Of a stretch of 64,000 nucleotides of DNA, positions 10,666 to 24,511 are shown in pieces (position 1 is the first letter of the stretch; each line of letters begins with the position of its first letter). The notes below the pieces were generated by a model. That model had not been told where the DNA came from. It saw nothing but the letters and a program-made list of their open reading frames with translations, and did no database searches. The DNA is from Cellvibrio sp. KY-GH-1 (GTDB lineage: Bacteria; Pseudomonadota; Gammaproteobacteria; Pseudomonadales; Cellvibrionaceae). Where the stretch lies: assembly GCF_008806975.1 (NCBI RefSeq), contig NZ_CP031728.1, forward strand, positions 2,997,501-3,061,500. The letters run 5' to 3'. The translations under genes were made by a program, and so were the position numbers.

Positions 10666-11012
10666 AAACGCACAAACAACCCGATAAAAAAGTCCGCAAC
10701 CAGTGTGACCCGATCCCGGCAATAAGGCAAAAAAACAAGGTTAGCTGAGCACTATAACAATTGCCCAAGCCCCCTAAGCACTTTCCCTGCAGAGACTTGC
10801 TCTGATTGCAACCTGCCAGTTATCCATCCGGGAAAGCAAAGTCATTCCGAGCAAGCCATCCCATCAATGCCGAAGGCCATCAAAATCTATCAGTGACCTC
10901 TGAGGGGCGGCTTCACACGCCAGCATTTAGAGTCGACAAAGTTTACACCGGAAAACCAACACTCAAAAACATGAGAACTGCATCACACAAAAAACCAATA
11001 ACTTACGCCATA
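10666..11012. other. Gene-free divergent region between oxyR and the PEP-CTERM gene
   Basis: About 350 bases without a convincing gene; a 74-codon frame at 10806-11030 has no ribosome site or recognisable sequence. An imperfect inverted repeat GTTTACACCGGAAAAC at 10941-10956, about 60 bases upstream of the sigma-54 promoter at 11013, is placed where an enhancer-binding activator could act. Nothing else was identified. Confidence 0.5.
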
Positions 11013-11028
11013 TGGCGCGAAAATTGCT
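11013..11028 (+). promoter_or_regulatory. Sigma-54 (RpoN) promoter of the PEP-CTERM gene
   Basis: TGGCGCGAAAATTGCT fits the -24/-12 consensus TGGCRCG-N4-TTGCW at every fixed position, with GG and GC 10 bases apart. Transcription would start near 11038-11040, about 48 bases before the ATG at 11087. In some other exosortase bacteria, PEP-CTERM genes are known to depend on RpoN together with the PrsK/PrsR two-component system, which fits this placement. Confidence 0.7.
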
Positions 11029-11086
11029 AATTGTGCAAATACCAAACAACGATAACCCACTCAATCAACTTAATGGACTTAGCTCT

Positions 11087-11914
11087 ATGCACTCACTAAA
11101 ACTCGCTCTCGCAGGGCTTGCGATTGCTTTTGGATTTATTAGCACCGCGAATGCGACGCCAATAACGTTCAATCTTACTTCCCCGGACTCTCGCAGCGGT
11201 ATTTACAGCAGCACCTATGCGATGCAATACAACTACGAAGAAGAAGATCTTGGCTTGGCAGTTACCGGCTGGTCTTACGGTATTAAAACCACCACCACAA
11301 AAACCTGTAAGAAATACGACCGTAAAGGCGCGTGTAAAGAGTGGAAAACTACCACTACCACTAGCTTGAACGAAGCGATTGAGCAGGACTATGTTGGCAA
11401 ATGGGATGGTTTAGGCGTTGAAAAAACCGACACTCCCAACCACGCGGTTGACAATGAGGCGGGCGACTACGATATGCACCTGCTCTCTTTCGATGAAATG
11501 GTGAAACTGACTGCTCTTGATATCGGCTGGTATCAAACAGATACCGACATATCTATTCTTGCGTTTAACGGTACCAGCTTCGACAACAGCTCATTACTGG
11601 GAAAAAAATGGCAGGATTTGATTGGCAACGGTTGGCAATTGGTGGGCAACTATTACAACGTCGATAACGGCCCAAATAACGGCGCTGTCAATGCAGGTGG
11701 CATAACATCTCAATACTGGTTGGTTGGCGCCTACAACAGCAACTTTGGCAATGCGTTTACTGGTCCAAACGTCGACAAATCCAAAGGCAACGACTACTAC
11801 AAACTCAAAGGGGTGGTTGTTGAGCGCCCGGTCAAGATTCCTGAGCCAGGTACAGCACTCTTATTAGCGATGGGGTTGCTCGGGCTGACACTTGCTCGCC
11901 GCCGCACCATCTAG
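11087..11914 (+). CDS. PEP-CTERM sorting domain protein (exosortase substrate)
   Basis: The 275-residue protein starts with a signal peptide (MHSLKLALAGLAIAFGFI ... ANA) and ends with a textbook PEP-CTERM tail: PEPGT near residue 252, a hydrophobic helix, then ARRRTI. Such proteins are exported, cleaved at PEP by an exosortase, and displayed or released, often together with exopolysaccharide. The body is Tyr-, Asn- and Thr-rich, with two cysteines inside a Lys/Thr-rich loop (TCKKYDRKGACKEWK) flanked by Thr runs. The ATG at 11087 is preferred because an upstream in-frame ATG at 11012 overlaps the sigma-54 promoter itself. The matching exosortase is not in this window. Confidence 0.88.
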   Translation: MHSLKLALAGLAIAFGFISTANATPITFNLTSPDSRSGIYSSTYAMQYNYEEEDLGLAVTGWSYGIKTTTTKTCKKYDRKGACKEWKTTTTTSLNEAIEQDYVGKWDGLGVEKTDTPNHAVDNEAGDYDMHLLSFDEMVKLTALDIGWYQTDTDISILAFNGTSFDNSSLLGKKWQDLIGNGWQLVGNYYNVDNGPNNGAVNAGGITSQYWLVGAYNSNFGNAFTGPNVDKSKGNDYYKLKGVVVERPVKIPEPGTALLLAMGLLGLTLARRRTI

Positions 11915-12871: not shown

Positions 12872-14374
12872 ATGAAAACATTCTTTAAGACCTACGCGCG
12901 ATTTATTTATCCAATCGTCATTTTGCTGGTCTCATACAGCATTTATTTTCCCTACTACGGCACACCTCAGGCGATGTTTTGGGACGAAAACTACCACGTG
13001 CCCAATGCGCAAAAACACATCGATGGCATGATGTATATGGAGCCTCATCCGCCGCTCGGCAAAATGCTGATGGCCGTTGGTGAAGTTTTATTTGGCGATA
13101 ATGAGGGCATTAACAAGCAGGCACTGTTAGAAACGGATTATTTAACTGGCGATGCAGCACCACCCACGATGACCTACAAAGGATATCGCTGGCCGTCGGT
13201 GGTAATGATGGCCTTTTCGGTAGTGTTTTTTTACGGAATTATCAACTGTATCACCCAACGGATGTGGCTTGCTGCCGCGTTTACGTCGTTGGTAATTTTC
13301 GATAACGCGTTGGTGATTCATTCTCGCGCTGCACACCTCGATGGTATTCAACTATTTTTTGTTCTCGGTGCCGTGTACTTTTTTGTCCGCGCAGCAACTC
13401 AATTTATTCATTACCAGCGCGCCGTACGCTTATCAGACTACGTTATCATTGGTATATGGATTGGCTTGGGAATAATGGTCAAAGTTACCGCCGCCATTTT
13501 ACTGTTGCTGTTTGCGATGCTTTATATTGTTGAACAATGGCCACAAATTAAAATTTGGGATTGGCGCGCACTACTAAAACGCTTGGTAACAACTGTGCCT
13601 TCTGCGGTAATCCCCGTTGTGTTGTGCATACTGGCAGTATTTTATATACACATAGGTATGGGCACTAAAGTGGTAGCCAACAAAACCTATAAAGCATCGC
13701 CGGAGTATTTAAATCAAATCCGAATGGGAGACACCTGGTCATTTAAGACCTTTCAGTTGGGCTTACGTGATAACTGGAAATACATGAGTGAATACGCAGA
13801 CGGGGTGCCACGCCTGGATGTGTGTAAACCGGACGAAAACGGCAGCTACGCGCTGGGCTGGCCACTGAGCAAAAAAACTATCAGTTACCGTTGGGACAGA
13901 AACGTGGAAGACGGTAAGGTAATTGTTAAATACAAATACCTAATTGGTAATCCGATTGTGTGGTTCTCTGTGGTGGGCGGATTAATTTTGTCTATCGGAT
14001 TAATCATCAGCCGCTACGTATACAACAACCCAGTGAAGGATGAAAAACTCTTTTATTGGATTTGCGCCTTCACTGGACTCTATCTCGCCTATATGGTGAC
14101 CATCCTGCAAATTGAGCGGGTGATGTACCTCTACCACTATTTTATTGCGCTGATTTTCGGAGCGATAAATCTCTCGCTGATTTACACCTATATTTATCGC
14201 GATGAAGTTATTGCCAATAACAAACACACAATTATCAATACAGTCCTATTTGCAGCGCTGGTGATTGCAATTTTTGCTTTCTTCTCGCCGTTCACTTACA
14301 GCTTCGGCCTAACCGAAGATCAATTTGAAATGCGCAACTGGTTCGATTTCTGGAAACTGCAGGTGGTGAGATAA
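12872..14374 (+). CDS. PMT-family (GT39-like) phospholipid-carrier-dependent mannosyltransferase
   Basis: This 500-residue polytopic membrane protein resembles protein O-mannosyltransferases, which move a sugar from a polyprenyl-phosphate carrier to a protein or glycan on the outer face of the inner membrane. The first extracytoplasmic loop carries the expected acidic pair in FWDENYH (Asp38-Glu39) followed by PHPPLGKMLMAVGE. Roughly ten hydrophobic segments follow, ending with a histidine/tyrosine-rich pair of helices (VMYLYHYFIALIFG). It lies 34 bases after the ThuA gene and 5 bases before the PA14 gene, so the three form one unit. The acceptor is unknown. Confidence 0.85.
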   Translation: MKTFFKTYARFIYPIVILLVSYSIYFPYYGTPQAMFWDENYHVPNAQKHIDGMMYMEPHPPLGKMLMAVGEVLFGDNEGINKQALLETDYLTGDAAPPTMTYKGYRWPSVVMMAFSVVFFYGIINCITQRMWLAAAFTSLVIFDNALVIHSRAAHLDGIQLFFVLGAVYFFVRAATQFIHYQRAVRLSDYVIIGIWIGLGIMVKVTAAILLLLFAMLYIVEQWPQIKIWDWRALLKRLVTTVPSAVIPVVLCILAVFYIHIGMGTKVVANKTYKASPEYLNQIRMGDTWSFKTFQLGLRDNWKYMSEYADGVPRLDVCKPDENGSYALGWPLSKKTISYRWDRNVEDGKVIVKYKYLIGNPIVWFSVVGGLILSIGLIISRYVYNNPVKDEKLFYWICAFTGLYLAYMVTILQIERVMYLYHYFIALIFGAINLSLIYTYIYRDEVIANNKHTIINTVLFAALVIAIFAFFSPFTYSFGLTEDQFEMRNWFDFWKLQVVR

Positions 14375-14379
14375 TAATT

Positions 14380-14943
14380 ATGAACATTCAATCCTACTTA
14401 ACTAAAAACTGGCTGTTCTCATTTGCACTCCTATTTGTGAGCCTGCTTATCGTCTACCGAATCGTTCCCGTCACTGTGGACCACGTTGTTAAACTGGTAA
14501 TCAGTAAAAATCGCGTGAGTATCGCCAATATTTACCAGCAACGCGATATAGAAAACACCAGCGAAGTCTGGGTGGACGTATTGGACCTGGAACATAAAAG
14601 CCGGTTCGGTCACCCCAAGCTGGGAAATGTAGCCAATTATTCAGATGATTTTTTTGTCGATGTTGACCATAAAATCACCGTGAAAAATTCGGACACCTAT
14701 CGCTTTATGGTAGGCAGTGATGACGGTTTTTCCTTGAGCATTGATGGCAAACTTATTTGTGAACACCTTGGCGATCGCCCTTTCAGCGTACAGCCTTGCC
14801 TGATCCACCTTGCAGAAGGAGAGCACCAAGTACATGTCTCCTATTTCCAGGGGTACGGCAATTCCGGCTTCACTGTCGAGTATGCGCGCGGCGATGAAAA
14901 GCCGCGCTGGTTTGGAGAGGATTCAAATAGCGTAAAATTCTAA
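14380..14943 (+). CDS. Membrane-anchored PA14-domain protein
   Basis: The 187-residue protein has one N-terminal transmembrane segment (about residues 11-30, WLFSFALLFVSLLIVYRIV) and an extracytoplasmic PA14 beta-barrel domain. The PA14 signature is clear in YRFMVGSDDGFSLSIDGKLI and in HLAEGEHQVHVSYFQGYG near the end. PA14 domains usually bind carbohydrate. With a start 5 bases after the mannosyltransferase stop, it may help that enzyme bind its glycan acceptor or product; this is inference from gene order. Confidence 0.82.
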   Translation: MNIQSYLTKNWLFSFALLFVSLLIVYRIVPVTVDHVVKLVISKNRVSIANIYQQRDIENTSEVWVDVLDLEHKSRFGHPKLGNVANYSDDFFVDVDHKITVKNSDTYRFMVGSDDGFSLSIDGKLICEHLGDRPFSVQPCLIHLAEGEHQVHVSYFQGYGNSGFTVEYARGDEKPRWFGEDSNSVKF

Positions 14944-14965
14944 ACGCTGATTCGTTCCCGCCAAC

Positions 14966-14995
14966 AACGCCTGCTTTTGCAGGCGTTTTGTTTTT
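14966..14995 (+). terminator. Terminator after the PA14 gene
   Basis: A perfect 8-bp stem ACGCCTGC-TTTT-GCAGGCGT (14967-14986) is followed by TTTGTTTTT, 23 bases past the stop codon. Confidence 0.92.
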
Positions 14996-15198
14996 ATAGG
15001 TATTAAGCTTTTAGCGCCATATTGAACCGTACCTCACTACTATAGGAACAGGCCCGCACTGTCTCTGCGTCAAGCTTCAAACTTTCGCAATTCCATCTTC
15101 ATCCGCGATTCACAATTCACAACCCTTGCCCATACTAAAGCGGCTTTCGCTTTGCCACGGTCACTTGTGCAACCCAAGCGCAACATTTAAGGGAAGTA

Positions 15199-16563
15199 AT
15201 GATGAAAACTTTGCTCGCCAACCGCGTCTTTGTCAAAACGATTTCGCAATGCCTGCCACGGCTATTATCAGCATTATTACTCTGTGCCACATCACCTGCC
15301 ATTGCCAAAACAATCCATGTCACTAAAAAAATAGATTCGCAAGATGGTATTTGCGATAGCGATTGCTCACTGCGCGAAGCAATTAATTACGTAAATAGCC
15401 ATAAAGACCTTAGCCATAGCATTATTTTAGATACCGGAATTTACCAGATATCGCTGATCACACCCCGTGATAGCGAAGAAAATGAAGCCGGCGTGGAAGA
15501 TGACAACCAAAATGGCGATATAGATATCTGGGGTAAAGTGACAATTTATGGATCAACACAAGGGCAAACTACTATCGATGCGCAACAACTGGATCGGCAT
15601 TTCACAGTGGCATTCGGTGCCGATGTTACGTTAAAAAATCTTCGTTTGGTCAACGGCATGACCCAGATGCAGGGTGGCTCCATTATGAATCTCTCCACGC
15701 TGAACATCGTGGATTGCCAATTTTCCGATAACACTGCCGAAGCTTTATTCAACGATGCCACGGGTGGTGCCATCAACAACCAACAACGACTCACGATAAA
15801 ACGCACAGAGTTTACTGACAACCTAGCCATTGCACACAACCATTTAAAAGCTATCGGCGGCGCATTGCATAACGCAGGTTATCTCTCTATGCGCGATAGC
15901 AGTTTTCGTCGTAACAAAACAGTATCCGCTGTAGATGAAAGTTACGGCGGCGCGCTGCACAATCAATATAACGCTGATATAGCGCGATCTTTGTTTACTG
16001 AAAACCGTACCGAAACCGGTGGGATGGCGATTTACAACTCGCGCAATTTAACAGTCGCCAACAGCACTATTAGTGGCAACCAGGGAGATGGCAATTCCAC
16101 CAACGGCGCAGTGCACAATATCGGCAAGCTCTCACTCATTCACACCAGCATTGTAAGCAACACCCTTGGTAGTGGCTTTTATAATCTGGGTGACGGCGCT
16201 ATTCGCAATAGCATTATCCTCAACAATAGCAGTGACACTTCCGTACACAACGCCAGCAATTGCATAAATAACAATAACCAATTAATTACGCGCGGCCTGT
16301 TATTAGGTAGCGGCAATAATTTGTGCGCTGGCGAATTGCATATTCAAGATTCGGAAATCTACTCACGCGTACTTGCACCTTTGGCGGCAAATAATGCCGC
16401 GCTGGAAACACACGCACTTCTGCGACTGAGCCCCGCAGTAGATGCGGGTATTGGTTCTTGCAGTACTTTTGACCAACGCCGGCAACCCCGACCTATTGAT
16501 GGCGACCACAACAGCGTTGCGAATTGCGACCTGGGGGCATACGAACGTCAAGCCAACGATTAA
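15199..16563 (+). CDS. CSLREA-domain beta-helix secreted protein, paralog 1
   Basis: First of five tandem paralogs (454 residues). A signal peptide covers about residues 1-36. The CSLREA box follows (DGICDSDCSLREAI), then an acidic loop (residues near 95-112, ending NGDIDIWG) and repeats of the type GGAI-N-x-L-x-I-x-x-S-x-F that should form a right-handed parallel beta-helix. The end carries SPAVDAGIGSCS ... CDLGAYE, a choice-of-anchor-Q type tail. Such proteins are exported and surface-linked or released; no catalytic residues can be named. This copy is the most divergent (DQRRQPRPIDGDHNS instead of DQRWQPRPVDGNADG). The start may be 15199 or the adjacent ATG at 15202, after GGGAAG. Confidence 0.85.
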   Translation: MMKTLLANRVFVKTISQCLPRLLSALLLCATSPAIAKTIHVTKKIDSQDGICDSDCSLREAINYVNSHKDLSHSIILDTGIYQISLITPRDSEENEAGVEDDNQNGDIDIWGKVTIYGSTQGQTTIDAQQLDRHFTVAFGADVTLKNLRLVNGMTQMQGGSIMNLSTLNIVDCQFSDNTAEALFNDATGGAINNQQRLTIKRTEFTDNLAIAHNHLKAIGGALHNAGYLSMRDSSFRRNKTVSAVDESYGGALHNQYNADIARSLFTENRTETGGMAIYNSRNLTVANSTISGNQGDGNSTNGAVHNIGKLSLIHTSIVSNTLGSGFYNLGDGAIRNSIILNNSSDTSVHNASNCINNNNQLITRGLLLGSGNNLCAGELHIQDSEIYSRVLAPLAANNAALETHALLRLSPAVDAGIGSCSTFDQRRQPRPIDGDHNSVANCDLGAYERQAND

Positions 16564-16598
16564 ATGCTTTCCATTTCATAAACTTAAAGGAGTTAAAC

Positions 16599-17957
16599 AT
16601 GCGCACTGCGATATTTTTTTCTCGTCATTTGCTGACCAGTTGCTGCGCTGTATTTGCAATCTGCGCCAGTACAGACACACTCGCAGCACAATTTGTCGTA
16701 ACCAAAACAACCGATTCGTTTGATGGCACTTGCGACACTGACTGTTCACTGCGCGAAGCAGTGCACGCAGCCAATCAAATACCCGGTGAACATAACATTA
16801 AACTCGAACCACTGACGTATGTTTACTCTATTCCCGCACCACGCGATGAAGAAGGAATAACTTTTGAAGAGGATGATATAAGCATCGGCGATATTGAAGT
16901 GCGTCAGTCAATCACTATCACAGGCTCCAAAACCGGTTCAACCGTCATCAATGCCAACTTCAAAGATCGACACTTCTCTGTAACTAACAACGCAACGCTA
17001 TCTTTGAGGAACGTTGCGCTCACCGGTGGACGTTGCTCCACGTTCGGAGGCGCGATATTGAATCGCGGCTCGCTGTATCTTCAGCAGGTTGTCATGGACC
17101 GCAATTTTGCGAGCGCGTGGATGGGCGGCGGCGGCGGCGCCATTGCAAATTTTAATGAAATGGAAATTCGACGCAGTAGCTTTAGTCGCAATGTAGCGTC
17201 ATTTGGTGATTCAGGATCAGCGATGGGTGGTGCAATTTTTAATTCGGGTAAGGCATATATACGCGATAGCGCATTTCGCCAGAACCGCGCAACAACGGAT
17301 GACGTCACCAGTCAGGGTGGCGCGATTTACAATGATGGCATCGCCGATATAGGCCGATCAATTTTTATAAAAAATGCGGCGGCGGGGGGAGGTATGGCAC
17401 TTTACAATCGGGGCCAGATGTCGGTCAGCAACGCCACAGTAAGTGATAGCACCGGTGAAGATATCTATTATTTCGGCGCAGTACAAAATACGACATCAGG
17501 CACACTGACTCTCATACACACGTCCATTCTTGGTAGCATTTTTGGTTCAGGCCTACTGAATTATGGCGCGGTCAGCATTCGCAACAGTATTATCATCGAC
17601 AATAAATACAGTAGTGAATTTAGCACTGAATATGAGGACTATAAAAACTGCGTCAACTACGCTCCTTCATCGCTTTTCAAAACTAAAGGTCTCTTACTTG
17701 GCAACGGCAACACCAAATGCACCGGTGAAATACACGCAGACGACTCCACAGCTTACAGCGAAATAGTCGCGCCCTTGGCGCAAAATAATTATGAGTTAGA
17801 GTCCTATGCGTTATTACCTAATAGCCCGGCAATAGATGCTGCAGTGGGCTCGTGCAGCTTGCATGACCAGCGTTGGCTGCCACGACCAATCGATGGCAAC
17901 GCAGATGGTATCGCCGCGTGTGACTTAGGCCCAATTGAAATGCAGATGGCAGAGTAA
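16599..17957 (+). CDS. CSLREA-domain beta-helix secreted protein, paralog 2
   Basis: Second tandem paralog, 452 residues. The ATG at 16599 is chosen because it follows a strong AAAGGAG site and starts a proper signal peptide; an earlier in-frame start at 16524 would overlap paralog 1. The CSLREA box reads DGTCDTDCSLREAV. The acidic loop is FEEDDISIGDIEV, and the beta-helix repeats include GGAIFNSGKAYIRDSAFRQN. The C terminus ends SPAIDAAVGSCS ... CDLGPIE. A glycine run (WMGGGGGAIANF) interrupts one turn. It lies 35 bases after paralog 1, consistent with one transcript. Confidence 0.85.
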   Translation: MRTAIFFSRHLLTSCCAVFAICASTDTLAAQFVVTKTTDSFDGTCDTDCSLREAVHAANQIPGEHNIKLEPLTYVYSIPAPRDEEGITFEEDDISIGDIEVRQSITITGSKTGSTVINANFKDRHFSVTNNATLSLRNVALTGGRCSTFGGAILNRGSLYLQQVVMDRNFASAWMGGGGGAIANFNEMEIRRSSFSRNVASFGDSGSAMGGAIFNSGKAYIRDSAFRQNRATTDDVTSQGGAIYNDGIADIGRSIFIKNAAAGGGMALYNRGQMSVSNATVSDSTGEDIYYFGAVQNTTSGTLTLIHTSILGSIFGSGLLNYGAVSIRNSIIIDNKYSSEFSTEYEDYKNCVNYAPSSLFKTKGLLLGNGNTKCTGEIHADDSTAYSEIVAPLAQNNYELESYALLPNSPAIDAAVGSCSLHDQRWLPRPIDGNADGIAACDLGPIEMQMAE

Positions 17958-17986
17958 ATAAGCAAACAATAGATAAGGACCTCAGA

Positions 17987-19339
17987 ATGAAAACTTCCAT
18001 TAAGCTTATTTTTCTCAACCTAACGATTTCACTACTACCACTTTATTTATACAGCGGCAGTGCGTTCGCCGACACAATTCGGGTCACCAAAACTACGGAC
18101 TCGTTCGACGGAAGATGCAATACAGATTGCTCACTCAGGGAAGCTATATGGCAGGCCAATAGAACACCCGGTGCGCATTACATTATTCTGGACGAAGGTG
18201 AATACCAACTGACATTGCCGCCACCCTATAACATCAACGGCGAGCAACTGCCTGAAGATGAAGCACGCAATGGCGATCTGGATATTAAAGGACAAATATT
18301 TATTAAAGGCACAGACACAGGCACAACAGTGATCAATGCCACCCAGCTCGATCGCCACTTCACCGCATTACCCAAAGCCACTGTTACACTGAAAAATTTA
18401 ACCCTTATTAATGGAAAAAACGCCAATCAAGGCGGTTCCATTATGAACCTGGCAACGCTGGTTATTGAGCACTGCATATTTAAAAACAACAGTGTCGATT
18501 CAGCACTCTACCGAGTCGATGGTGGTGCCATCGCCAACTATGCGAACGCCCGCATTCAGCGCAGTGAGTTTATCAACAACTCAGTGAATTCCACCAACGC
18601 CAAAGATTCAACAGGCGGTGCAATTTATAACAGTGGTAACTTGCTGGTGCGCGACACAGTCTTTCGGGCCAACCAGGCGATCTCTGCTCCACTTTACGGT
18701 CACGGAGGAGCGATAAGCAGCACCAACAAGGCCGATATTGCCCGCTCGATATTTATCGGAAATAAAACGACTGGCGGCGGCATGGCGATTTTTTCTATGT
18801 ACGACATGAAATTGAGCAATATCACCGTTAGCGATAACTCGGGCAACAACCCCTATCGCATGGGCGCGCTGGAATCCATCGGAAAAATATCCATCATCAA
18901 TAGCACTATAGTGAACAATCACGGCGGGGCCGGCGTGCAGACAACGAGCGAGACACTTATTCGCAACAGCATTATTTTAAATAACTATGATACCCCAACC
19001 CCGGCGAGTAGCAGCCCTGCACCAAATAACTGTGATCACCTGGGCGCAAGCAATAAATTAACTACGCGCGGCTTACTACTCGGAGAAGGCAATACCGAAT
19101 GCACTGGTGAGATCTATGTGGAGGACGAAAATACTTTCACCCAGGTGCTCTCCCCTTTAGCAAAAAATAATTATCACATGGAAACACACGCACTGCGACC
19201 AAACAGCCCCGCCATTGATGCAGGAATAGGTTCATGCAGCGCCCATGATCAACGCTGGCAACCAAGACCTGTCGATGGGAATGCCGATGGTGTTCCCGGT
19301 TGTGATCTAGGTTCGTTCGAATACCAAACCAGCGATTGA
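17987..19339 (+). CDS. CSLREA-domain beta-helix secreted protein, paralog 3
   Basis: Third tandem paralog, 450 residues, starting 29 bases after paralog 2 behind AAGGACC. It has a signal peptide (to about SAFA at 28), the box DGRCNTDCSLREAI, an acidic loop ending RNGDLDIKG, and beta-helix repeats. GGGMAIFSMYD replaces the usual MAIYN turn. The conserved tail is RGLLLGEGNTECTGEIYV, then SPAIDAGIGSCSAHDQRW ... CDLGSFEYQ. Cysteines occur in the CSLREA box and in the C-terminal GSC/CDLG pair, suggesting disulfides after export. Function is unknown. Confidence 0.85.
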   Translation: MKTSIKLIFLNLTISLLPLYLYSGSAFADTIRVTKTTDSFDGRCNTDCSLREAIWQANRTPGAHYIILDEGEYQLTLPPPYNINGEQLPEDEARNGDLDIKGQIFIKGTDTGTTVINATQLDRHFTALPKATVTLKNLTLINGKNANQGGSIMNLATLVIEHCIFKNNSVDSALYRVDGGAIANYANARIQRSEFINNSVNSTNAKDSTGGAIYNSGNLLVRDTVFRANQAISAPLYGHGGAISSTNKADIARSIFIGNKTTGGGMAIFSMYDMKLSNITVSDNSGNNPYRMGALESIGKISIINSTIVNNHGGAGVQTTSETLIRNSIILNNYDTPTPASSSPAPNNCDHLGASNKLTTRGLLLGEGNTECTGEIYVEDENTFTQVLSPLAKNNYHMETHALRPNSPAIDAGIGSCSAHDQRWQPRPVDGNADGVPGCDLGSFEYQTSD

Positions 19340-19378
19340 CTTTTCCCTAGTCACAACCACCAAGCAAAGGAATCGACA

Positions 19379-20716
19379 ATGCAATTTCGAAAAAATAATA
19401 TTAATTTATTTTCCACCACACTTTCCGCCGCATTTACCACACTAATCGCTGCTGCATCCCTGGATAGTGCAGCAACGGAATTTATTGTTACTAAAACAAT
19501 CGATTCATTTGACGGAATTTGCGACAGTGACTGTTCATTGCGCGAAGCAATCGAAACGGCAAACCAAAACAGTGGCAACCATTTTATTAAACTTTCGTCG
19601 GGAACTTATGAATTAACCATTCCGTCTCCCAGCGAAGCAGATGACGATATTGATTTGGATACCAGCAACAGCATTGGCGATTTGGATATACGCAATGACA
19701 TCACCATTACCGGAAAAAAAGATGGATCCACTGTTATCAATGCCGGTGAACTAAGCAGGCATTTTACTGTTTATCAAAATAGCAGTTTGACGCTGAAGCA
19801 TCTGCAATTAATTAATGGTTTTACTTCATTCCATGGCGGGTCCATTTCAAATAGCGGCTCAGTGAAAATTGAAAATTGCCTATTGAAAAATAATCTTGCC
19901 ATATCTTATTGGCATAGAAACTACGGCGGCGCCATTGCCAACTGGGGCACACTAACAATACAGCGCACCGAATTTATCAATAACACCACTGCCGCTGGGC
20001 CTGGTGAATATGACTATGCTTTCGGTGGCGCTATTTATAATTTCAAAACCATGACGATCCGTGACTCTGCATTCCGCAGTAATCGCGCTACAACCGATGG
20101 ACCCTATGGTTTGGGTGGTGCTATTTATAACCATGGAATCACCGATGTCGGTCGGTCAGTTTTTATTGGCAATAGTACCAAAGATGGAGGCATGGCAATT
20201 TACAACGCAGGCACCGCAAATCTAAGCAATATTACTATTAGCAAAAATCGCACAGAAAGCTCTGGCTTGGCTGGCGCATTGCAAAATGAGGAAACACTTA
20301 CGCTGATTAACAGCAGCATAGTCGACAACAACCCCGGAGCAGGACTCTACAGCTTCAGCGACACACAAATACGTAACAGCATTATCCTCAATAATAATGG
20401 TGATACACCCATCAATTGTTACAACCAATATACATTTTATCCATTTAAGACACGCGGCCTGCTATTAGGCGGTGGCAATACGCAATGCGAGGGAGATATT
20501 TACGTTGCTGATAGCGAAACTTTTACGCGCGTGTTGGCGCCACTTGCACAAAACAATTATCACCTTGAAAGCCACGCACTATTGCCAAACAGCCCAGCAA
20601 TAGACGCAGGTATTGGCTCTTGCAGTGCACACGACCAACGCTGGCAACCGCGCCCCGTTGATGGCAATAGCGATGGCGTTGCCCTGTGTGATCTGGGGGC
20701 ATTTGAATTGCAATAA
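19379..20716 (+). CDS. CSLREA-domain beta-helix secreted protein, paralog 4
   Basis: Fourth tandem paralog, 445 residues, 39 bases after paralog 3 behind AAAGGAATC. It has a signal peptide (to about DSAA), the box DGICDSDCSLREAI, an acidic loop DDDIDLDTSNSIGDLDI, and repeats such as GGAIYNFKTMTIRDSAF and MAIYNAGTANLSNITIS. The tail is RGLLLGGGNTQCEGDIYV, then AIDAGIGSCSAHDQRW ... CDLGAFELQ. Its tail protein sequence is nearly the same as in paralogs 3 and 5, while synonymous bases differ widely, so the copies are old and kept by selection. Confidence 0.85.
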   Translation: MQFRKNNINLFSTTLSAAFTTLIAAASLDSAATEFIVTKTIDSFDGICDSDCSLREAIETANQNSGNHFIKLSSGTYELTIPSPSEADDDIDLDTSNSIGDLDIRNDITITGKKDGSTVINAGELSRHFTVYQNSSLTLKHLQLINGFTSFHGGSISNSGSVKIENCLLKNNLAISYWHRNYGGAIANWGTLTIQRTEFINNTTAAGPGEYDYAFGGAIYNFKTMTIRDSAFRSNRATTDGPYGLGGAIYNHGITDVGRSVFIGNSTKDGGMAIYNAGTANLSNITISKNRTESSGLAGALQNEETLTLINSSIVDNNPGAGLYSFSDTQIRNSIILNNNGDTPINCYNQYTFYPFKTRGLLLGGGNTQCEGDIYVADSETFTRVLAPLAQNNYHLESHALLPNSPAIDAGIGSCSAHDQRWQPRPVDGNSDGVALCDLGAFELQ

Positions 20717-20782
20717 CACACTAAAGATGTTCACCGCCTAACACAGTTTTCAGTAATCACACAATCAGTAAGGGAGCCAACG

Positions 20783-22141
20783 ATGCATCACAAAACATAT
20801 CAACACCCGCTAAAAACCCTCATATTACTAGGCTTACTCGGCTGCACAGCAATAAGCCAAAATACTCTGGCTTGGCAATTTGTTGTGACTAAAACCACCG
20901 ATTCATCTGATGGCAGTTGCGATACTGATTGCTCATTACGCGAAGCAATCGACGCAGCCAGTAAATACAGCGGCGGCAACGTTATTTTTCTCAAGGCTGA
21001 AACCTATGAATTAACATTGCCCGCGCAACTGGATGAAGAAGGAGAAATTATCGATGAAGACAACAATAAAAATGGCGATTTGGATTTAAAAACCCACGTA
21101 ACAATCAAGGGGGCTGAAGGCGGGCGAACCATCATCAATGCTAATAAGCTGGATCGACATTTTACAATTTTTGAAAAAGGTGGGTTGACGCTAAAGCATG
21201 TGGAGTTAATTAACGGCAAAAGCTCTACCAGTGGTGGGTCCATTTTAAATTTCAACATCGCCCATATTGAAAACTCCAAACTGACAAATAATATAGCCAC
21301 ATCGGGTTGGCATAGGGGCAACGGTGGAGCTATTGCAAACTACCACACGCTCTACGTGCAACGCAGCGAGCTTAACAACAATATTGCTTCCTTCGGCGAC
21401 ACCAGCTACTCATTCGGCGGAGCCATTTACAATAAAGGTTTTACTATCATCCGCGACTCCGCCTTTCGCCAAAACCGCGCGCATACAGACGACGTGATTA
21501 GCTACGGAGGGGCAATTTACAACGAAAGCGAAGCAGATATTGGGCGTTCAATATTTGTTGGAAATTCGGCGCAAGGAGGAGGCATGGCCATCTACAACAC
21601 TGGAAAAGTCACTATCAGCAACGCAACCATTAGCGGTAACAGTGGCGATTATTATCAAGTAACGGGAGCACTACACAACACAGGTACGCTCAGCCTCGTA
21701 AACACTAGCATTATTAATAATTGGGTAGGCGCAGGATTTTACAACACTGGTACGAGCAACATCCGCAACAGCATTATCCTACACAACCTCAGCGACTATC
21801 CCGATGAGGAATACCCTCCTGCGCCCGTTAACTGCTATAACTCCAGCCCCGCTTCACAATTTAAAGCTCGCGGTTTGTTATTGGGTGAAGGTAATACCAA
21901 ATGTGCGGGTGAAATTTATGTCGCCGACAGTGATACCTTCACTCATGTATTAGCACCACTGGCACAAAATAATTATCATCTGGAAACACACGCCTTGTTG
22001 CCCAACAGTCCAGCGATAGACGCCGGTATTGGTTCTTGCAGTTCGCACGATCAACGCTGGCTGCCGCGCCCTGCTGATGGCAATGCCGACGGTGTTGCAA
22101 ATTGTGATTTGGGCGCATTTGAATTACAACCATTACCCTGA
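20783..22141 (+). CDS. CSLREA-domain beta-helix secreted protein, paralog 5
   Basis: Last of the tandem array, 452 residues, 66 bases after paralog 4 and behind TAAGGGAG. The signal peptide ends near residue 30 (QNTLA). The CSLREA box is at about 46-55 (CDTDCSLREA), the acidic loop at 82-101 (EEGEIIDEDNNKNGDLDL) and helix repeats from about 130 to 340. The tail is RGLLLGEGNTKCAGEIYV, then SPAIDAGIGSCSSHDQRW ... CDLGAFELQ. A strong palindromic terminator follows 15 bases after the stop. Role unknown; surface glycan binding or cleavage is plausible for a beta-helix in a polysaccharide degrader, but is inference. Confidence 0.85.
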   Translation: MHHKTYQHPLKTLILLGLLGCTAISQNTLAWQFVVTKTTDSSDGSCDTDCSLREAIDAASKYSGGNVIFLKAETYELTLPAQLDEEGEIIDEDNNKNGDLDLKTHVTIKGAEGGRTIINANKLDRHFTIFEKGGLTLKHVELINGKSSTSGGSILNFNIAHIENSKLTNNIATSGWHRGNGGAIANYHTLYVQRSELNNNIASFGDTSYSFGGAIYNKGFTIIRDSAFRQNRAHTDDVISYGGAIYNESEADIGRSIFVGNSAQGGGMAIYNTGKVTISNATISGNSGDYYQVTGALHNTGTLSLVNTSIINNWVGAGFYNTGTSNIRNSIILHNLSDYPDEEYPPAPVNCYNSSPASQFKARGLLLGEGNTKCAGEIYVADSDTFTHVLAPLAQNNYHLETHALLPNSPAIDAGIGSCSSHDQRWLPRPADGNADGVANCDLGAFELQPLP

Positions 22142-22156
22142 CAAGCATAAGTGCTC

Positions 22157-22190
22157 GCTAAAAATGCCTGCAATTGCAGACATTTTTAGC
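22157..22190. terminator. Bidirectional terminator between the CSLREA array and secDF
   Basis: A 34-base nearly perfect palindrome (GCTAAAAATG-c-CTGCAATTGCAG-a-CATTTTTAGC) lies between the convergent paralog 5 and secDF stops. It has T-rich arms on both strands and is followed by CTTTTTT on the plus strand. Confidence 0.8.
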
Positions 22191-22210
22191 GTCGCTTTTT
22201 TAAGAACAAA

Positions 22211-24511
22211 TTAAGGTAAATTTTCTCGATCAGATTCTGCCAACAACGGACGCAACTGCCCCTGCCCCTTCCGGGCGCGTTTAACACCCAACCAGTGCAC
22301 TATGGGCGCAGCAATTAAGATCGACGAGCTGGTACCAATCACAATACCGAACAGCATCGGCAATGCAAAACTGGATACTGCGCTGCCACCCGCGATTCCC
22401 ATCGGCAACAATGCCAAAAAAGTTACCACAGACGTAAAGATAGTGCGTGTAAGCGTGGAAGTAATACTTTCATTTAATAATTCGAGCAAAGGCTTTTTAG
22501 GATCAGCGCGCAAATTTTCGCGAATGCGATCAAATACCACCACCTTGTCATTGACCGAGTAACCAATTAACGCGAGTAGCGCCGCCACTGCCGTTAAATT
22601 AAACTCCACGCCTAACAATGCAAAGAAACCGATGGTTTTGGTGAGATCCAACGCGAGGGTGATTGTCGCCGCCAGCGCAAAATGCGATTCAAAACGCACC
22701 CATAAATAGCCAAGCATTCCCAAACCAGCCAGAACAATTGCAAGAATTGTGGCATCACCAAAATCACCACTTACGCGCGGCCCCACCATTTCTGTGCGGG
22801 GAAAACTCGCTTCCGGCGCTAACTGCAACACCTTGTCTTTTACTGCTTGAACCTGAGTGCCGGTTGCCACGTCCTCTGCCGTTTGTGCTGGCAACCGGAG
22901 CAAATAATGGCCGTCACTCCCAAACTCTTGCAACGCGACCTGATGAAAATCGCGCGTCGATAATTGTTCGCGCAAATCACTAACATTTAAACCCGGCGCC
23001 TGCACTTCAATCACGCTACCGCCACTAAAATCGATACCGTATTCCAGCCCCGGTTTAAAAAACAAAAATACGGACGCGAGCGATAACACAGCTGACGCAA
23101 TCAAACCAGCGTAGCGTGCACGCATAAAGGGAATCGTGTTTTCACTCACGGTGTCCAGCCATTTAATACCAGTAATTTTTAGCGGTTGTTTGCCCAGTTT
23201 GCGTACGCGCCATTCCATGACCAAGCGTGTGAATGAAATGGCAGTGAACATGGAAATTAGCAGACCCACTGCCATAGTTACTGCAAAACCACGCACCGGA
23301 CCGCTACCAAATAGAAACAACAAACTGATAGCGATGAGCGAGGTGAGGTTGGAATCAAGAATGGTGGCGTAAGCGCGTTGAAAGCCAGCATTCAATGCGG
23401 CCATCGCCGGTTTCCCTTGGCGAGTTTCTTCGCGGATTCTTTCATTAATTAGGATGTTCGCATCTACCGCCATGCCGATACTTAAAATAAATCCGGCAAT
23501 ACCGGGCAGGGTTAGTGTTGCGCCAAGCAAACCCAAAATACCAAACGTCAAACCAATATTAATCGCCAATCCAAGACATGCAATCACTCCCCAACGACCA
23601 TAAATTCCCACCATAAAACCTAGCACTAGGAGTGCACCTAAAATACCCGTGCTAATTCCCATGGAAATTGCGTCGCTGCCTAAATCCGGCCCAACCGTCC
23701 GCTCTTCAATGACGTTTAGCGGCGCAGGCAACGCGCCTGCGCGCAACAACAAGGCAAGGTCATTTGCACTCGCACTGGTAAACGATCCGCTTATTTCACC
23801 ACTGCCGCCCTGAATAGCACTGCGAATTACCGGCGCTGTAACAACCTGGTCGTCCAACACTATCGCTAACGCCCGACCAATATTATTTTTGGTTAAATTG
23901 CCAAATTGAAGCGCACCTTCATCGTCCAATTTAAAATTCACAACCGGCTCATTGGTTTGCTGGCTAAATGCAAGGCGCGCATCACTGATATGCTTTCCTT
24001 CCAACACAACTCGCTCTTCAAGCTGATAGCTACTACCTGACATTTCGCCTTTTACAGAAATTACGGGTGTGCCTGAGCGGGTTTTCTGATCGGCAACCCA
24101 ATGGAATGTCATCTTGGCAGTGGTGCCCAATAATTCGCGAATATGTTGCGGGTCGCTCACGCCCGGCATTTGCACCAGAATACTGTCTTGTCCTTGCCGG
24201 GTAATAATCGGTTCCACCATACCCGTTTCATTTAATCGGCGACGCACCACTTCCAAACTCTGCTCGACTGCGTCATGGATAATTTGCGCGTGCAGTGCTG
24301 GATTTTTATTTTGTGTTAATTCACTGGTATCGACTTCCAGCAATAAATGCGAGCCACCGCGCAAATCCAACCCCAGGGTAATTTGCTGTTGCGTGTACCA
24401 ATCCGGCAATTTTTTTAACCAGGAATCCGGCAGTAGGTTGGGCGCTGCGCACAGCAGTCCCAATAGAATAACCAGGCCATATACCAACGCCCGGGATGAA
24501 AGAGTTTTCAT
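22211..24511 (-). CDS. secDF: Fused protein translocase subunit SecDF
   Basis: SecD and SecF, normally two proteins, are joined in one 766-residue chain that uses the proton gradient to pull exported proteins out of SecYEG. The SecD half starts MKTLSSRALVYG and carries DLRGGSHLLLEVD (about 45-57), MVEPIITRQGQDSILVQMPG, and the transmembrane motif MAVDANILINERIREE. The SecF half begins with GLEYGIDFSGGSVIEVQ and carries GYSVNDKVVVFDRIREN. I chose the ATG at 24511, which follows GGCGGAG, over an upstream start at 24547. Fused forms occur in several gammaproteobacteria, often beside a normal secD-secF pair elsewhere; that cannot be checked here. Confidence 0.92.
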   Translation of the reverse strand: MKTLSSRALVYGLVILLGLLCAAPNLLPDSWLKKLPDWYTQQQITLGLDLRGGSHLLLEVDTSELTQNKNPALHAQIIHDAVEQSLEVVRRRLNETGMVEPIITRQGQDSILVQMPGVSDPQHIRELLGTTAKMTFHWVADQKTRSGTPVISVKGEMSGSSYQLEERVVLEGKHISDARLAFSQQTNEPVVNFKLDDEGALQFGNLTKNNIGRALAIVLDDQVVTAPVIRSAIQGGSGEISGSFTSASANDLALLLRAGALPAPLNVIEERTVGPDLGSDAISMGISTGILGALLVLGFMVGIYGRWGVIACLGLAINIGLTFGILGLLGATLTLPGIAGFILSIGMAVDANILINERIREETRQGKPAMAALNAGFQRAYATILDSNLTSLIAISLLFLFGSGPVRGFAVTMAVGLLISMFTAISFTRLVMEWRVRKLGKQPLKITGIKWLDTVSENTIPFMRARYAGLIASAVLSLASVFLFFKPGLEYGIDFSGGSVIEVQAPGLNVSDLREQLSTRDFHQVALQEFGSDGHYLLRLPAQTAEDVATGTQVQAVKDKVLQLAPEASFPRTEMVGPRVSGDFGDATILAIVLAGLGMLGYLWVRFESHFALAATITLALDLTKTIGFFALLGVEFNLTAVAALLALIGYSVNDKVVVFDRIRENLRADPKKPLLELLNESITSTLTRTIFTSVVTFLALLPMGIAGGSAVSSFALPMLFGIVIGTSSSILIAAPIVHWLGVKRARKGQGQLRPLLAESDRENLP

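What the first reader, a model, noticed from the sequence alone, without database searches (positions are those of the whole stretch)
15199..22141. Tandem array of five CSLREA beta-helix paralogs
Five same-direction genes of nearly equal length (445-454 residues) encode secreted proteins with the same order: signal peptide, CSLREA box, acidic loop, beta-helix repeats and a choice-of-anchor-Q-like tail. Gaps are 29-66 bases, each gene has its own good ribosome site, and a single terminator closes the array. Protein tails are almost the same while codons differ widely, so the copies are old and selected. An expressed set of five variants points to a surface complex, or to recognition of varied glycans.
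Basis: partly seen in the sequence, partly recalled or inferred. Interest (0 to 1): 0.7.

Follow-up and report, generated by a model that had tools for sequence, protein, structure and literature searches.

The report
Five-gene secreted beta-helix protein array
Five old, related, secreted spiral-shaped proteins sit in one gene cluster that sequenced relatives of this bacterium lack; they probably bind something outside the cell, and they belong to a widespread protein family whose job is still unknown.

Summary
Five intact same-strand genes (15199-22141; 454, 452, 450, 445, 452 aa) each carry a CSLREA box, a choice-of-anchor-Q tail and, by eye, a signal peptide. They are old paralogs (42-57% protein identity, synonymous sites at or near saturation) laid out like one operon.

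Added here. The Q tail is the true C-terminus: nothing long enough for a sorting signal follows it in these five or in 115 top-ranked homologs. The structure predicted for gene 5 (pLDDT 93.8) is a beta-helix closest to the Rhombotarget A (RbtA) helix domain. The array lies in a 7.3-kb stretch absent from the same site in two relatives, and no CSLREA match was found in 20 other same-genus genomes. In a protein tree each of the five has its own partners among metagenomic proteins, so the five diverged before those lineages split. Rungs repeat GGA(I/L/V) and FxxN motifs, as in chlamydial Pmp adhesins, framing loops that are among the most divergent parts between paralogs. Evidence that orthologs keep their loops is mixed.

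Best reading: secreted, capped, loop-displaying binding proteins, probably T2SS substrates. Binding is inferred, not shown; an enzyme remains possible. The surface-complex and varied-glycan ideas are untested.

The parts
14966..14987 (+). terminator hairpin closing the upstream PMT-PA14 gene pair; left edge of the extra segment
   Evidence: hairpin plus T-run; one similar hairpin lies between PA14 and SecDF in L059 and L060
14988..15198 (+). leader region of the array; one weak promoter-like site (15109-15136, 9 of 12)
   Evidence: promoter-like sites in 14700-22400 are not above chance: 13 found, 12.9 expected
15199..16563 (+). array gene 1 (A1), 454 aa, CSLREA + choice_anch_Q
   Evidence: tree partners P0005, P0007, P0013
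16599..17957 (+). array gene 2 (A2), 452 aa from the ATG at 16599; only member over the Pfam Chlam_PMP gathering score
   Evidence: tree partners P0008, P0011, P0014
17987..19339 (+). array gene 3 (A3), 450 aa
   Evidence: tree partner P0006
19379..20716 (+). array gene 4 (A4), 445 aa
   Evidence: tree partners P0003, P0015
20783..22141 (+). array gene 5 (A5), 452 aa; the protein whose structure was predicted
   Evidence: tree partners P0009, P0010, P0012
22156..22191 (.). hairpin after the array, facing the convergent SecDF gene; probable terminator and right edge of the extra segment
   Evidence: inverted repeat I5, arms of 18 nt, 94% complementary; similar to the single hairpin of the empty site; not listed by the terminator scan

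Best explanation
The five genes probably form one operon that makes five variants of a secreted, anchorless protein. Each is a right-handed beta-helix closed at the N-terminal end by the CSLREA cap and at the C-terminal end by the choice-of-anchor-Q cap (modelled for gene 5, inferred for the others by homology). The caps are probably locked by disulfides and calcium; this is inferred from six invariant cysteines and DxNxDG-like acidic runs. Export by Sec and then, probably, by the type II secretion system is inferred. Repeated GGA(I/L/V) and FxxN motifs hold the rungs, and between them each rung puts a loop on one face (by analogy with Pmps). I infer that this loop face binds a ligand outside the cell (a polysaccharide, a surface or a cell) and that the five variants differ in what they bind. 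The array is an accessory cassette: present in this genome, with metagenomic kin, and not found in sequenced relatives.
Confidence: 0.5

Rival explanations
1. The five are secreted polysaccharide-active enzymes (lyase or epimerase type) with different substrate preferences, fitting a polysaccharide degrader.
Against: No Pfam or NCBIfam enzyme family is credibly matched by 5 of 5. No Lys reaches 60% conservation in the 120-sequence alignment; the best His columns are 69% and 64% (tail) and 52% (helix). Of 19 columns invariant in 120 sequences, 15 lie in the cap regions and 4 (L70, G110, R125, G242) between them. By secondary structure the Arg positions sit at or near strand-turn corners, where structural ladders occur, so they may be structural.
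Confidence: 0.25
2. The five are subunits of one extracellular or matrix structure, each needed once.
For: One gene cluster with similar gene lengths, and own tree partners for each. Metagenomic proteins of type A1 and type A5 appear to share one 7507-bp contig, and A1 and A2 types one 6488-bp contig, judged only by equal contig lengths.
Against: Single-copy genomes are common: 4 of 10 Pseudomonas genomes have one match at E 1e-20, and the L002 genome has one at E 1e-10. Copies in one genome can lie on different contigs, such as five on five contigs in G054, so a fixed five-part assembly is not general.
Confidence: 0.13
3. The array is functionally tied to the neighbouring protein O-mannosyltransferase and PA14 genes, for example as their glycosylation substrates.
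For: PMT (12872-14374) and PA14 (14380-14943) lie directly upstream on the same strand.
Against: PMT-PA14 sits beside SecDF without the array in L059 and L060. A terminator separates them. No PMT or PA14 relative (blastp E 1e-8) was found in the ORFs of the 56 loci of the genome scan.
Confidence: 0.04
4. The array is a neutral or selfish accessory expansion without a selected role for five copies.
For: Patchy presence and no constant partner gene.
Against: All five are intact with dS far above dN or saturated, and each has its own supported tree partners.
Confidence: 0.08

Closest known systems
Rhombotarget A (RbtA, TIGR04212; crystal structures 9CDV and 9CDU)
   Different: RbtA has an Ig-like domain and a transmembrane segment after the helix (PMC12643943 passages); these proteins end after the helix, and no score comes near the cut-off of 295 bits
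Chlamydial polymorphic membrane proteins (Pmp adhesins, PF02415 repeat)
   Same: paired GGA(I/L/V) and FxxN motifs in successive rungs, loops between the pair, several paralogs (PMC10715098)
   Different: no autotransporter barrel found, only 2-3 strict motif pairs per protein, closed at both ends; 1 of 5 passes the Pfam gathering score
choice-of-anchor-Q and CSLREA proteins (NF041518, TIGR04214) of Pseudomonas and other bacteria
   Same: same architecture and length; several copies per genome, four in tandem in Pseudomonas mangrovi and five in a Nevskia MAG
   Different: the window proteins and their metagenomic kin form a separate clade with five long-separated lines; the Nevskia copies group together like a younger local expansion
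Pel9A pectate lyase (PL9, 1RU4) and AlgE-type epimerases
   Different: no credible enzyme family match in sequence; no well conserved Lys

Membership tests
CSLREA domain proteins (TIGR04214) | N-terminal CSLREA motif over the curated cut-off of 25 bits | tested here: met
   5 of 5: 25.5, 36.9, 30.2, 32.1, 39.7 bits
choice-of-anchor Q proteins (NF041518) | Q domain over the curated cut-off of 25 bits | tested here: met
   5 of 5: 57.7, 35.6, 52.8, 56.6, 57.0 bits
choice-of-anchor Q proteins (NF041518) | C-terminal sorting or anchor signal after the Q domain (expected from the name; recalled) | tested here: not met
   only 1-14 residues follow in these five and in 115 homologs
Rhombotarget A (TIGR04212) | full-length family score over 295 bits | tested here: not met
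   33.1 and 24.7 bits for 2 of 5, no listed match for 3 of 5
Rhombotarget A (TIGR04212) | beta-helix domain of the same fold | tested here: met
Rhombotarget A (TIGR04212) | Ig-like domain and C-terminal membrane segment | tested here: not met
   protein ends after the beta-helix cap; RbtA layout from PMC12643943 passages
Pmp adhesins | repeated GGA(I/L/V) and FxxN motifs | tested here: met
   3-4 and 2-4 per protein, 2-3 pairs; weak by profile: PF02415 over gathering score in 1 of 5 only
Pmp adhesins | C-terminal autotransporter barrel | tested here: not met
   no such Pfam match up to E 0.1 in 5 proteins; the A5 model shows no barrel
Pmp adhesins | adhesion to cells | not testable with these tools
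   needs binding assays
PL9 pectate lyase | catalytic Lys and calcium site (recalled) | tested here: inconclusive
   no Lys conserved over 56% in 120 sequences; no residue-level structural overlay was available
Type II secretion substrates | export depends on the T2SS | not testable with these tools
   a gspD over cut-off exists in the genome; a CSLREA protein is a putative T2SS substrate elsewhere

The most novel reading that the evidence does not exclude
A free-living bacterium carries a transferable repertoire of secreted Pmp-like recognition proteins. One capped scaffold is made in five lasting versions, each displaying its own loop face, as soluble or surface-returning adhesins or agglutinins for different polysaccharides, prey or other surfaces. 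The rung design known from chlamydial adhesins would then be used in bacteria at large without an autotransporter.
Probability: 0.25. Interest if true: 0.65.

Novelty: new variant of a known kind. Interest (0 to 1): 0.42.

Why it matters
CSLREA beta-helix proteins occur in several phyla, and in Acinetobacter, yet only 2 papers in the searched library mention CSLREA, each once, and a 2025 paper calls its RbtA structure the first of the class. This array offers five natural variants of one minimal, anchorless, probably soluble domain outside a pathogen. Comparing the five directly could show what the domain binds and whether the rung loops decide it.

Tried and rejected
Recent amplification: rejected by saturated or near-saturated dS and short identical runs. 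Phage or plasmid carriage: no match for A5 in 50,697 phage records; the viral contig scan confirmed no relative (27 pattern hits, 0 confirmed); 11 plasmid records matched A5, all under 60% identity. Defence system or phage family: no PADLOC and no PHROGs match for 5 of 5. Function from gene neighbours: among 26 related loci no gene family recurs in more than 6. Five Pseudomonas loci share a block of ordinary genes (MscS channel, Na/H exchanger, acyl-CoA dehydrogenase), as one chromosomal site would. Of 18 recurrent neighbours scanned, 13 have Pfam matches (also Mqo, DctP, TonB receptor, FecR, MFS, GGDEF/EAL, short-chain dehydrogenase) and 5 have none; two of those 5 (L118, L119) sit where the array gene itself was matched, so they are probably spurious overlapping ORFs. 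None gave a hint of function. Positions fixed within and differing between ortholog groups: only 4 found. PDB search by sequence gave RbtA only at E 6.9 for A2 and one other hit, at E 0.76, for the profile, although the fold match is strong. Compositional proof of transfer: the array (GC 0.464) is close to the window (0.485), so this is not informative.

Limits of my own counts: searches gave gene 2 with one extra codon upstream of its ATG. The 120-row alignment A2 holds the five window proteins and 115 of the 120 listed homologs (P0001, P0002, P0004, P0097 and P0106 were left out) out of 1422 hits, so 'invariant' means invariant among top-ranked relatives. The tree used 57 chosen rows (39 of the listed homologs, without the near-identical P0001, P0002 and P0004), a quick search with SH-aLRT support only, and has long branches. 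One search scored at most 4 candidates per genome, so 10 of 398 is a lower bound. The ORF filter lost some true array ORFs (none listed for L118, L119 and L130; 4 of 5 in L003; 2 of 3 in L122). Coil and loop borders were set by hand on A5.
Full report
What is there. The five ORFs exist as described, on the + strand, with gaps of 35, 29, 39 and 66 bases, each with a ribosome site. A terminator at 14966-14987 separates the upstream PA14 gene from the array, and a hairpin at 22156-22191 follows gene 5; the terminator scan did not list the latter. Promoter-like sites are no more frequent than in shuffles (13 against 12.9), so I name no promoter, and one transcript is inferred from the layout. All five pass both curated cut-offs, CSLREA and choice_anch_Q. 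Signal peptides were read by eye (hydrophobic stretch, then an A-x-A type site, no lipobox cysteine) and were not run through a predictor.

Age. Protein identity between the five is 42-57%. Between 50 and 62% of identical residues use different codons. NG86 dN is 0.35-0.61; dS is 2.2-3.8 in 5 of 10 pairs and undefined in 5 of 10; YN00 failed for all 10 pairs. The tail is more conserved than the rest (57-86% against 40-52%), with no long identical DNA runs (maximum 18 nt). This is old divergence under purifying selection, not conversion.

Where it occurs. The whole genome (5.76 Mb, one contig) has five CSLREA matches over the cut-off, all in this array, and two weak ones below it. None of the other 20 same-genus genomes has a CSLREA match at E 0.001; 16 of the 21 searched are at least 90% complete and at most 5% contaminated. 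With the full-length profile four of the 20 show only weak, partial matches (best E 1e-8 to 1e-16). In the family, 2 of 144 genomes match at E 1e-20, the own genome included. In the genus of the Pseudomonas mangrovi genome, at least 10 of 398 genomes match; full scoring of those ten gives 1 to 12 matches per genome, and two of the twelve in G021 look like halves of one gene. P. mangrovi has four in tandem and a Nevskia MAG five. The window's assignment to Cellvibrionaceae is inferred: the Teredinibacter locus L004 lies at the same contig coordinates as G541, which one search lists as the same family.

Empty site. SecDF was used to find the place in relatives. Of ten relatives with a close SecDF (L058-L067), two (L059, L060) have PMT, then PA14, then one hairpin, then the SecDF end, with about 70-80 bases between PA14 and SecDF. 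A third (L065) has about 0.9 kb there with an unrelated small gene. In the other seven PA14 was not found in the flank held (up to 1.5 kb; L062 lies near its contig edge). In the window 7.27 kb lie between the two genes, bounded by two similar hairpins. The simplest reading is an insertion at a terminator; loss in both relatives is not excluded. It also speaks against the PMT-PA14 pair belonging to the array.

Orthologs. In a tree of 57 proteins the five window proteins and their closest metagenomic kin form one clade (20 rows, SH-aLRT 100). Inside it each window protein has its own partners: A1 with P0005, P0007 and P0013 (100); A2 with P0008, P0011 and P0014 (100); A3 with P0006 (100); A4 with P0003 and P0015 (100); A5 with P0009, P0010 and P0012 (89). 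P0003 and P0005 are 98-99% identical to A4 and A1, so they are near-conspecific. The Nevskia copies group together instead, with L005, as a separate expansion.

Structure. With five sequences the model of A5 was partial (pLDDT 72); with 120 sequences it reached pLDDT 93.8 and pTM 0.91, with confident caps at both ends. Foldseek ranks RbtA first (E 4e-9, TM-score 0.57 by query length), and the second look by VIA-align does too; Pel9A and AlgE4 are close behind by Z, so the lead is not large. Six cysteines are invariant in 120 of 120, and acidic positions D99, D101, D423, D432, D436 and D442 are conserved at 90-100%. Disulfides and calcium are inferred from this.

Rungs and loops. Each protein has 3-4 GGA(I/L/V) and 2-4 FxxN motifs, with GGA-to-FxxN pairs in 2-3 successive rungs. 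PMC10715098 (abstract, passages and sections 7 and 9 seen) reports that in Pmps these motifs are buried and frame loops on one face, and that loop regions correlate with tropism. In the window proteins the corresponding loops are, with the T1 turns, the least alike coil parts between paralogs (0.21 and 0.23). Pooled ortholog pairs (17) keep the loops at 0.78. A wider test gave loops 0.780 and other helix columns 0.775 in orthologs, against 0.257 and 0.528 between paralog groups; 8 of 230 circular shifts reach the effect (6 of 230 with gaps left out) and plain shuffling of columns never did in 5000 trials. Group by group, A2 and A5 show loops kept better than core, A1 diverges in proportion, and A3 and A4 keep loops worse than core. 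A second array (P0019-22) does not show the effect; five other tree pairs do. I therefore call paralog-specific loops plausible, not shown.

Export and anchoring. The genome has a gspD over cut-off and a rhombosortase over cut-off, but the five proteins lack any tail for the latter. In 120 aligned proteins 1 to 14 residues follow the last conserved Glu. One CSLREA protein was among putative T2SS substrates in Acinetobacter (PMC9245377, one passage).

Literature. Searches for CSLREA (2 papers), rhombotarget (8), choice-of-anchor (20), Cellvibrio with beta-helix and tandem (5), and polymorphic outer membrane protein with Pseudomonas and beta-helix (0) listed no study of such arrays by title or abstract start. 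Only open PMC papers are held.

Verdict. A real, old, accessory cluster of five anchorless RbtA-like beta-helix proteins. Binding through a loop face is the most likely role (0.5), an enzyme the main rival (0.25).

Noticed in passing
12872-14374 and 14380-14943: A bacterial protein O-mannosyltransferase-like gene (PMT, PMT_4TMC) directly followed by a PA14-domain gene with a hydrophobic N-terminus (by eye); the pair is kept together in relatives L059 and L060, so it may be a functional unit of its own.
   Followed up: partly
11012-11914: An exosortase-dependent surface protein XDP1 with a PEP-CTERM signal (214.5 bits, cut-off 125).
   Followed up: no
14943-22211 and L065:3795-4708: The gap between the convergent PA14 and SecDF genes holds different cargo in different relatives (nothing in two, a small lipoprotein-like gene by eye in one, the array here), which suggests an insertion hot spot at a terminator.
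   Followed up: partly
G000:C1:2286088-2286543: The genome has a rhombosortase over cut-off although the array proteins lack GlyGly-CTERM tails; its substrates were not sought.
   Followed up: no
L003:1375-8722: A Nevskia MAG carries five tandem copies of the same family that group together in the tree, an independent and probably younger expansion.
   Followed up: partly
G021 (Pseudomonas mangrovi), several contigs: Twelve family matches in one 4-Mb genome at several sites; two of them (C10:10037-11343) look like halves of one gene in different frames.
   Followed up: no
L124:9528-10499 and L132:10426-11271 (also L121, L131): In 4 of 26 related loci an ORF cluster lies within 188 bp of the family gene; the two members scanned (L124, L132) have no Pfam match and may be spurious ORFs.
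   Followed up: no
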